Shown here piece after piece: positions 17,456-21,967 of a stretch of 35,752 bases of DNA. The stretch comes from Deltaproteobacteria bacterium (GTDB lineage: Bacteria > Desulfobacterota > Desulfobaccia > Desulfobaccales > 0-14-0-80-60-11), in NCBI GenBank assembly GCA_030655955.1, contig JAUSOZ010000221.1:1-35752 (forward strand). The letters are read 5' to 3'. The notes beneath the pieces were generated by a model. That model was not told the origin of the DNA. It saw nothing but the letters and a program-made list of their open reading frames with translations, and searched no databases. Position numbers and translations under genes: made by a program. Positions within the stretch are counted from its first letter, which is position 1. Every line of letters begins with the position of its first letter.

Positions 17456-20400
17456 TCACGATGCCGCTACATCATCCGGCACTTCCTCCATCTCAATGGC
17501 GCCAATCTTGGCCAGGAACTGCTTATCCCGGTGGTGCATCAACTCGATGGCCTTGCGGGGACAAGCGCTGGCGCAGCTGCCGCAGCCGTGGCAGGCCGCC
17601 GGGTCGATGGTGACGACCCCTTCCGCCTGGTCCACCCGGGGCACCCCGTAGGGGCAGGTGCGCATGCAGGTGAGACAGATGATGCATTTCTGCGGGTCAA
17701 CCGCGGCCACGGCGCCGCCGACGTACATATCCTCCTGGGCCAGGATGCCCAGGGCTCGGGCCGCGGCCCCCTGGGCCTGGGCGATGCTCTCCTCGGTGAA
17801 CTTGGGGCTGTGGGCCAAGCCGCAGAGAAAGATGCCGCTGCTGGCGAAGTCCAGCGGTCGCAGCTTCTGGTGCGCCTCCATGAAGAAGCCGTCGGCATCC
17901 AGGGGCAGCTTGAAGAGTTGGGCGATCTCCTGGGAGACCGGATGGGGCCGGATGGCCGCCGACAGGGTCAGGTAGTCCGCCTTGAGCTTGATGGGAACCC
18001 TGAGGTTTTGGTCAAAGACCGTGATCAGGAGCCCCTCGCCATCGGCGGCCACTTCCGGCGGGCGCTCCGGCTCAAAGCGAATGAACTGCACCCCCAGGTC
18101 CCGGGCCTTTTTGTAGTAAATCTCTTTCAGGCCGTAGGTGCGGATGTCCCGGTAGAGGACGAAGACCTTAGCCTGGGGCCGGATTTCCTTGATTTTCAGG
18201 GCATTCTTGACGGCTTCGCCACAGCACACCCGGCTGCAGTAGGGATGCTCCGGAGACCGGGATCCCACGCACTGAATCATCACCATAGTGGGCTCGGCGC
18301 CGCAGTCTCCGGGACAATCCGCCAGCAGGCCTTCCAGCTCTAACTGGGTCATAACCCGGGGATGTTGGCCGTAAAGGTATTCCGTGGGTTTGTATTCCTG
18401 GGCACCAGTGGCAATCACCACGGCGCCGTAGTGGATTTCCCACTGGTCGTCGGGGAACTCCAACTTGCTGCGGAAACTGCCCACGTGGCCGGAAAAACTG
18501 GTCATCTTGGCATTGGGCCACCAACGTATGTTGGGGTGCTGTTCCACCTGGCGCACCAGGTCATCCATGAAGGGCTGGACCTCGTGCCCTTCCAGGGTGT
18601 AGCGCATCTTGTTGGCCAGGCTGCCGCCGAGACGCTCCTGGAGATCCGGCAGATAGACCCGATAACCGGCGTTGGCGATGGTCAGAGCCGCCACCAGGCC
18701 GGCCAGACCGCCGCCCAGCACCAGGGCCCGCCGCGCCACCGGGAAGGGGAATTCGTGCAAGGGTTCCAGCACCCCGGCTCGGCCCACCGCCATCTTGACC
18801 AGTTCCTTGGCCTTGGCGGTAGCCTGCTCGGGGTTCCCCTGGTGCACCCAGGAATCCTGGTCCCGGATGTTGGCCATCTCAAACAGATACTTGTTGAGGC
18901 CGGCCTGGCGCAAATTATCCTGGAAGAGGGATTCGTGGGTCCGGGGGCTGCACGAAGCCACCACCACCCGGTTGAGCCGATTCTCCTCGATCACCTGGCG
19001 CATGGCCGCAAGGCTGTCGGTGGCGCAGGTGAAGGTGTAGTGGTCGGCATAGACCACGCCCGGCAGGGTCAAGGCAAACTCGCTCACCTGGGCCACGTCG
19101 ATCACTCCGGCGATGTTGACGCCGCAGTGGCACACGAAGACGCCGACACGCGGCTCCTCCGCGGCGATCTCCCGTTCCTCCGGATAGGTCGCCTTGGTCA
19201 GGAGGGTGCCCCGAACCTCGCTCAAGAGGGCGGCCGCCGCCCCCGCCGCCGCCGAGGCCTGGCCCACGGTTTCGGGGATGTCCTTGGGCGACTGGAAGAC
19301 GCCGCAGGTATAGATCCCCTCCCGGCTGGTCTCCACCATTTTGAAGGGCGGATTTTTCACGAAGCCCCACCGGTCGGTATCGATGCCGCAGACGGCCGCC
19401 AGCTTCGCCGCCGCCGGATGGGGCGTCAGGCCCACGGACAGGACCACCATATCGAACTCTTCCAGCCGGATTTGGCCGTCCTCGTCCACAAAAGTAAGCT
19501 CCAGGTTATGGGTGCGGGGATCTTCCGTCACCCGGGAGATCATGGAACGGATGAGGCGCACCCCGTGTTCGTCCCGGGCCCGCTCGTAGTAGCGATCAAA
19601 ACCCTTGCCCTGGGCCCTGAAGTCGATGAAAAAGATGGTGGGTGTAACCCCATGGTCGTGTTCTTTGGCGATGATAGACTGCTTGGCGGCGTACATGCAG
19701 CACACGTAGGAGCAGTATTCCCGGCCGATGGAGGCGTCCCGGGAGCCCACGCACTGGATCCAGGCGATTCTTTTGGGCTCGGCCTGGTCGCTGGGGCGTC
19801 TGACGTGGCCGGCGCACGGCCCGGTGGCGGACAGCAGGCGCTCGAATTCCAAAGAGGTGATGACATTGGGGTAGCGGCCGTAGCCGTACTCGGGCTTCAA
19901 TTTGGCGTCGAAGGTCTTAAAACCCGGGGCCAGGATGACCGCCCCCACCTCCAGGGTCTGGGTCCGGGGCTGCTGCTCGTGGGCAATGGCCCCGGCCTTA
20001 CAGGCCTCGACGCACTGCATGCATTCGGAACAGGCGCCGCAGTTGATGCACCGGGCCGCCTCGGCCTGCGCTTGCGCCTCGGTGAAGCCCAGGTTGAGCT
20101 CCTTGAAGCCTTGAGTCCACTCCGCCTGATCCAACTCCGGCATGGGTTCCCGCGCCGTCTTGGGCTGGTCTGCGGGGATGGGATTCCAGTTGCCGTCCTG
20201 AATGGGCCTAAGCGCCGCCTCCCGGTCGGCCTTGAGGTCCAGCCCGTCAAGATGCCGGTCGATGGAAATGGCGGCTTCCCGCCCCGCGGCCACCGCCCCG
20301 ATAGCGATCCAGGGGCCGGTCACCACGTCGCCGCCGGCAAAGACGCCGGCTCTCGAAGTGGCCAACGTGTCCGGGTCCGCCTCGATCAGGCCCCGGCCGG

Positions 20401-21967: not shown

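What the first reader, a model, noticed from the sequence alone, without database searches (positions are those of the whole stretch)
17456..21967. HdrA with a GltD/NfnB-like domain inserted internally, plus a second HdrA module; likely NAD(H)-type specificity
The insertion begins just after CNACGACAEVCPVMLPSTFDEGMGQRHAAFRHFPQAVPSTFAIKKFDRAPC and ends before HdrA resumes at ARCINCGACSECMQCVEACKAGAI, so it lies within the Fe-S region of the first HdrA module. In the second Rossmann fold (VIGGGNVAMDVARVARRQGAASVSLIALESAEELPAS), the Arg pair seen in NADPH-binding GltD-type proteins (VYRRxEENMP) is replaced by ALES, with an acidic residue. This suggests NADH rather than NADPH. The second HdrA module lacks the DCSTC-type Cys motif present in the first (GGSLANKMRYTLEGHEVQPF). 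Together these imply a single polypeptide with NAD(H) input and two unequal flavin modules.
Basis: partly seen in the sequence, partly recalled or inferred. Interest (0 to 1): 0.7.

Follow-up and report, generated by a model that had tools for sequence, protein, structure and literature searches.

The report
NAD-binding HdrA of folate reductase complex
This large redox enzyme subunit, which probably links NADH to a key step of the acetyl-CoA carbon pathway, is a known kind of protein, but its relatives show that the domain binding NADH or NADPH has been swapped in and out repeatedly like a plug-in cartridge.

Summary
The ORF at 17456-21967(-) is real: 1503 aa, a tandem HdrA whose first module is split by a complete GltD/NfnB-like domain (about residues 173-645). 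The architecture is not new. Moorella thermoacetica HdrA is described with the same layout and oxidises NADH; HdrL of Desulfobacterium autotrophicum and archaeal "type III HdrA" also carry GltD-like inserts. Here the gene sits in hdrC-hdrB-hdrA-mvhD(Sec)-metV-metF, so it is best read as the HdrA of an Hdr-type methylenetetrahydrofolate reductase complex in a bacterium with DsrA and acetyl-CoA synthase. The unequal modules also hold and match the published Cys197/N-terminal-domain complementarity. New here: the insert behaves as an exchangeable cassette. LE-type (NAD-like) and RR-type (NADP-like) inserts split once on the insert tree but switch 7-9 times on the backbone tree; near-identical backbones carry different inserts with breaks at the two seams, and AU tests reject a shared history. 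In the window's family 11 of 21 genomes carry both types. Whether the swap really changes cofactor is unproven.

The parts
17456..21967 (-). hdrA: 1503-aa tandem HdrA with internal GltD/NfnB-like domain
   Evidence: ORF; families; PDB sequence matches
21455..21907 (-). module 1, first half of the TrxR-like FAD domain with the Cys197-equivalent motif DCSTC (Cys73/Cys76) and first [4Fe-4S] motif CNACGACAEVCP
   Evidence: alignment to 8rvu/5odc; positions
20033..21451 (-). inserted GltD/NfnB-like cassette, residues about 173-645 (Fer4_20 plus FAD and NAD(P) Rossmann folds)
   Evidence: empty-site comparison; swap breakpoints
20660..20764 (-). second Rossmann motif GGGNVAMDVARVARRQGAASVSLIALESAEELPAS, residues 402-436; Leu427-Glu428 in place of Arg-Arg
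19193..20050 (-). module 1, resumed ferredoxin motif (CINCGACSECMQC) and second half of TrxR domain, with Glu709 and Lys762
17459..19159 (-). module 2: N-terminal [4Fe-4S] domain, TrxR domain without DCSxC and without inserted ferredoxin, C-terminal 2x[4Fe-4S] domain; Glu1212, Lys1254
16908..17366 (-). mvhD/flpD-like, 152 residues, selenoprotein: in-frame TGA at 17169-17171 followed by a hairpin
   Evidence: tRNA-Sec and SelB in the genome
16231..16911 (-). metV (MTHFR C-terminal domain PF12225)
15354..16238 (-). metF, methylenetetrahydrofolate reductase (PF02219)
22061..22915 (-). hdrB (CCG domains)
22912..23676 (-). hdrC; real start probably the ATG near 23526
13861..15216 (-). QmoA-like/HdrA-like protein next to metF
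   Evidence: neighbour conserved in relatives
11831..13921 (-). QmoB-like: HdrA C-terminal half fused to MvhD/FlpD
   Evidence: neighbour conserved in relatives

Best explanation
It is the HdrA subunit of an Hdr-type (type IV) MetVF methylenetetrahydrofolate reductase complex, of the same layout as Moorella thermoacetica HdrA. NAD(H) binds the inserted GltD domain and exchanges a hydride with that domain's FAD (inferred). Electrons pass through [4Fe-4S] clusters of the Fer4_20 part and of the interrupted ferredoxin domain to the FAD of HdrA module 1, which has the Glu/Lys pair of bifurcating HdrA (residues shown, function inferred). Module 2 completes module 1 as an internal pseudo-dimer, giving the N-terminal cluster domain while module 1 gives the bridging Cys197 equivalent, and joins via its C-terminal ferredoxin domain and MvhD/HdrBC to MetVF (inferred). 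In this organism, which has DsrA and acetyl-CoA synthase, the complex may run in either direction; the third redox partner is unknown. Within the family the GltD domain is an exchangeable cassette of two classes, LE (NAD-like, as here) and RR (NADP-like); the exchange is shown by incongruent trees, the change of cofactor is inferred.
For: Operon order hdrC-hdrB-hdrA-mvhD-metV-metF, conserved next to mvhD-metV-metF in most relatives. Layout as described for M. thermoacetica HdrA, which oxidises NADH. AlphaFold model of residues 15-925: mean pLDDT 90.2, pTM 0.86; Foldseek matches HdrA (TMt 0.94 on 8rwn_A) and NfnB/GltD (TMt 0.79-0.80). Module 2 matches HdrA 5odc (TMq 0.77). Glu709 and Lys762 invariant in 58 of 58, aligning with E356/K409. 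LE in 53, RR in 32, RG in 5 of 90; apart from residue 428, which defines the classes, many other positions around the NAD(P) site differ consistently between them. Exchange.
Against: No cofactor measured for this protein; motif-based NAD/NADP calls can fail. The GxGxxG/A criterion used in PMC12054007 does not separate the classes: nearly all LE and RR inserts have GGG(N/D)VA in the second Rossmann fold. Module 2's Glu/Lys pair is poorly conserved (Glu 16 of 40, Lys 33 of 40). M. thermoacetica's complex did not couple NADH to methylene-THF in vitro, so the overall reaction is unsettled. The M. thermoacetica sequence could not be fetched, so its motif class is untested.
Confidence: 0.8

Rival explanations
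1. The inserted domain uses NADP(H), like NfnB and GltD, and the Leu-Glu change only alters affinity or gives dual specificity.
For: The solved close relatives of the insert that are best studied (NfnB, GltD, DPD) are NADP(H) enzymes; other basic residues are conserved in the LE class.
Against: The acidic residue replaces Arg at the 2'-phosphate position and the whole NAD(P)-side region (about residues 426-503) changes together with it; Moorella HdrA of the same layout oxidises NADH.
Confidence: 0.12
2. The protein is not part of a MetVF complex: the insert feeds electrons to another partner (DsrC or the QmoAB-like proteins) and the metVF linkage is incidental.
For: Close paralogs occur with mvhD only or with no hdr partners; HdrL1 of Db. 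autotrophicum is next to dsrABC; QmoA/B-like genes follow metF here and in relatives.
Against: mvhD-metV-metF follow this gene across Desulfobacterota, Chloroflexota and Proteobacteria; S. ovata and M. thermoacetica biochemistry link HdrA to MetVF.
Confidence: 0.15
3. The LE/RR mosaic is an artefact of MAG assembly rather than real exchange.
For: Most sequences are MAG contigs; the cleanest pair (L142) rests on one genome.
Against: The same chimera appears in independent MAGs (L016, L017), and several swap clades hold two or more genomes (L146/L147, L149/L151, L156/L158); breakpoints lie inside continuous ORFs at the same seams.
Confidence: 0.04

Closest known systems
HdrA of the HdrCBA-MvhD-MetVF complex, Moorella thermoacetica (Mock et al. 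2014, described in PMC9430772 and PMC8760232)
   Same: Ferredoxin/TrxR region interrupted by a GltD domain, second TrxR module without the inserted ferredoxin, clustered with hdrB, hdrC, mvhD, metV, metF; NADH oxidation shown; Glu/Lys pairs in both modules.
   Different: Selenocysteine MvhD and QmoA/B-like neighbours in the window; several paralogs per genome here, including RR-type inserts. The Moorella sequence itself was not compared.
HdrL1-3 of Desulfobacterium autotrophicum HRM2 (PMC2702500)
   Same: Large HdrA/glutamate-synthase fusion with NADH site, next to mvhD, in a sulfate reducer.
   Different: HdrL1 is next to dsrABC rather than metVF; HdrL1 and HdrL3 are selenoproteins.
Type III HdrA / HdrA9-11 of ANME-1 and Bathyarchaeota (PMC12054007, PMC9012536)
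   Same: GltD/NfnB-like insertion within the ferredoxin domain.
   Different: Described as otherwise HdrA1-like in layout; two independent insertions inferred there, no cassette exchange reported.
Tandem HdrA of Sporomusa ovata HdrCBA-MvhD-MetVF (PMC9430772)
   Same: Two TrxR modules, same operon partners.
   Different: No GltD insert; corresponds to the insert-free tandem HdrAs seen here in Desulfobulbaceae.
NfnB / GltD / PRK12771 family
   Same: Fold and sequence of the insert.
   Different: NADP(H) Arg pair replaced by Leu-Glu; domain embedded in HdrA.

Membership tests
Hdr-type (type IV) MTHFR, HdrA subunit | Encoded with hdrB, hdrC, mvhD, metV, metF | tested here: met
   conserved in relatives
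Hdr-type (type IV) MTHFR, HdrA subunit | Physical complex with MetVF and NADH oxidation | not testable with these tools
   needs biochemistry; shown in M. thermoacetica and partly S. ovata
HdrA with inserted GltD domain (type III HdrA of PMC12054007) | GltD domain inserted in the HdrA ferredoxin domain | tested here: met
Fused HdrA pair | Complementary Cys197 and N-terminal domain between the two modules | tested here: met
   module 1 has DCSTC and no N-terminal domain, module 2 the reverse; criterion
Bifurcating HdrA | Glu and Lys equivalent to E356/K409 of M. thermolithotrophicus HdrA | tested here: met
   E709/K762 and E1212/K1254 present; first pair invariant 58 of 58, second loosely kept
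PRK12771 (NF009410) GltD-like subfamily | Score over curated cut-off 516 bits | tested here: inconclusive
   534.5 bits on the whole protein, 487 bits in the six-frame search
HdrA2 (NF040770) | Score over curated cut-off 1100 bits | tested here: not met
   950.9 bits
NADP(H)-dependent NfnB/GltD | Arg pair (YRR) at the 2'-phosphate site | tested here: not met
   Leu427-Glu428

The most novel reading that the evidence does not exclude
The GltD insert of HdrA is a natural exchange cassette: recombination at two conserved Fe-S seams has repeatedly swapped an NAD-type for an NADP-type module, or removed it, on the same HdrA scaffold, rewiring which nicotinamide pool feeds an electron-bifurcating complex.
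Probability: 0.65. Interest if true: 0.68.

Novelty: new member of a known kind. Interest (0 to 1): 0.45.

Why it matters
How Hdr-type methylenetetrahydrofolate reductases conserve energy is an open question. The architecture itself is known, but pairs of natural proteins with about 90% identical backbones and different nicotinamide modules are ready-made chimeras. They make the cofactor question, and the entry route of electrons into HdrA, directly testable, and suggest that cells retune electron bifurcation by swapping the input domain.

Tried and rejected
Assembly chimera of the window ORF: rejected, same in-frame layout in many genomes. Novel architecture: rejected after finding Moorella HdrA, HdrL and type III HdrA in papers. 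The 2014 Moorella paper is not held; its content is taken from two later papers. A degenerate DNA pattern for the DRAPC seam across the phylum was uninformative because it matches widely, also by chance. Library searches for a published domain exchange in HdrA found none; absence there is weak evidence, as most papers of subscription journals are missing.

Full report
OBSERVATION. Pfam and NCBIfam find a GltD-like domain (PRK12771 match 171-674; Fer4_20 172-248; pyridine-nucleotide oxidoreductase 265-562) between HdrA segments. A phmmer search of the PDB aligns residues 25-168 and 642-862 to neighbouring stretches of one HdrA chain, 930-1105 to the HdrA N-terminal domain and 1348-1491 to the HdrA C-terminus, and 172-652 to Nfn/GltD-type chains.

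WHERE THE INSERT SITS. Tandem HdrA proteins without insert, one of them in the same genome (L084, 65% identical over residues 638-1490), show the empty site. The filled proteins read '..PQAVPSTFAIKKFDRAPC[GltD]ARCINCGACSECMQCVEACKAGAI..', the empty ones for example '..PQAIPSAYAIDKDKCVGCNRCLKVCQAEAI..' (L051).

STRUCTURE. AlphaFold on residues 15-925 with 57 homologs gave mean pLDDT 90.2 and pTM 0.86. Foldseek finds HdrA across the split (TMt 0.94 to 8rwn_A, 899 alignment columns because of the insert) and NfnB/GltD for the insert (TMt 0.79-0.80 to 5jca, 4ylf, 6s6s). Module 2 gave pLDDT 82.7 and matches HdrA 5odc with TMq 0.77.

UNEQUAL MODULES. Module 1 keeps DCSTC (Cys76 aligns with Cys197 of M. 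thermolithotrophicus HdrA by counting on the alignment) and lacks the N-terminal cluster domain; module 2 has the N-terminal domain (CHCG, residue 946) and lacks the Cys and the inserted ferredoxin domain. Complementary loss of this sort is published for fused and tandem HdrAs, including M. thermoacetica HdrA, and is read as an internal heterodimer (PMC9012536). The Glu/Lys pair of bifurcating HdrA is Glu709/Lys762 and Glu1212/Lys1254; the first is invariant in 58 of 58 sequences, the second is not (Glu 16 of 40, Lys 33 of 40). So module 1 is the better candidate for the bifurcating flavin (inference).

CONTEXT. The minus-strand gene order is hdrC, hdrB, hdrA, mvhD, metV, metF, a QmoA-like and a QmoB-like gene. 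MvhD has an in-frame TGA where Cys orthologs have Cys, with a hairpin just behind it whose stem changes on both sides between loci, and the genome has tRNA-Sec and SelB. The genome also has DsrA and the acetyl-CoA synthase beta subunit. mvhD-metV-metF follow this HdrA in most relatives, from Desulfobacterota to Chloroflexota and Proteobacteria.

WHAT IS KNOWN. M. thermoacetica HdrA is described as 162.8 kDa with a TrxR region interrupted by a GltD domain, a second TrxR module, and operon partners HdrBC, MvhD, MetVF; it oxidises NADH (PMC9430772; PMC8760232). HdrL of Db. autotrophicum (2009) is an HdrA/glutamate synthase fusion with an NADH site (PMC2702500). Type III HdrA in archaea has an inserted GltD domain (PMC12054007).

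COFACTOR. At the 2'-phosphate site the related NADP(H) enzymes have Tyr-Arg-Arg; the window has Ala-Leu-Glu. Of 90 GltD domains collected (including 7 not in HdrA), 53 are LE (counted by the Glu; one of these is Arg-Glu), 32 RR and 5 RG, the last all in Alpha-, Beta- and Gammaproteobacteria. Comparing 53 LE with 25 inserted RR domains, the residues at 426-428 differ throughout (428 by definition of the classes) and most other class-specific positions cluster in residues 426-503. This supports NAD(H) use for LE; it does not prove it.

CASSETTE EXCHANGE. 76 non-redundant HdrA-GltD-HdrA proteins and 32 insert-free tandems were compared. On the insert tree LE and RR separate by one change; on the HdrA backbone tree they need 9. 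With 34 representatives and IQ-TREE the counts are 1 and 7, at least 6 forced by well-supported branches. AU tests reject RR as one clade on the backbone (p 1.9e-116), L016 with its backbone relatives on the insert (p 1e-5), and L142 with L082/L170 on the insert (p 7e-48); the groups were chosen after seeing the trees, so the p-values overstate, but log-likelihood differences of 363-1433 leave little room. L142 (same genus as the window) is mostly 80-100% identical to L170/L082 outside and about 28-77% inside residues 162-660. L016 matches the window-type backbone but its insert is 81% identical to the insert of L083, a paralog in the window's own genome. L017, from another MAG, carries the same mosaic, though its ORF is split between two frames. 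In the window's family 11 of 21 genomes examined hold both classes. Insert-free tandems are interleaved with filled ones, so gain or loss has also recurred.

VERDICT. Ordinary in kind, accurate in observation, with a new and well-supported evolutionary pattern whose functional meaning, a switch between NAD and NADP, awaits an enzyme assay.

Noticed in passing
16908-17366 (-), TGA at 17169-17171: mvhD is a selenoprotein gene with Cys in close orthologs (L001, L002, L005-L007) and Sec in others (L026, L038); ordinary ORF callers would truncate it.
   Followed up: yes
11831-15216 (-): QmoA-like and QmoB-like genes directly after metF, conserved in Desulfobaccales and Desulfarculaceae relatives; a possible extra electron module of the MTHFR complex.
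   Followed up: partly
L036, L037, L041, L042, L045, L049: HdrA-GltD-HdrA in Alpha-, Beta- and Gammaproteobacteria (with mvhD-metVF-hdrCB where the contig reaches that far), with an unusual Arg-Gly (or Arg-Glu) motif at the 2'-phosphate site.
   Followed up: no
L150, L157, L163: Single-module HdrA of 1142-1183 aa with the GltD insert, RR type, in the same family; resembles archaeal type III HdrA.
   Followed up: no
L161 (G000 contig C251), 2805-10235: Second MetVF-linked cluster in the window's genome with an RR-type HdrA-GltD-HdrA, Cys-type MvhD and an extra MetF-like gene.
   Followed up: partly
G000 C1, C91, C278, C284, C311: Several other HdrA copies in the genome carry in-frame TGA and may be selenoproteins.
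   Followed up: no
L038 and L051: Insert-free tandem HdrA at the same syntenic metVF-qmo locus as the window, L051 being sister to the insert-bearing L015.
   Followed up: partly
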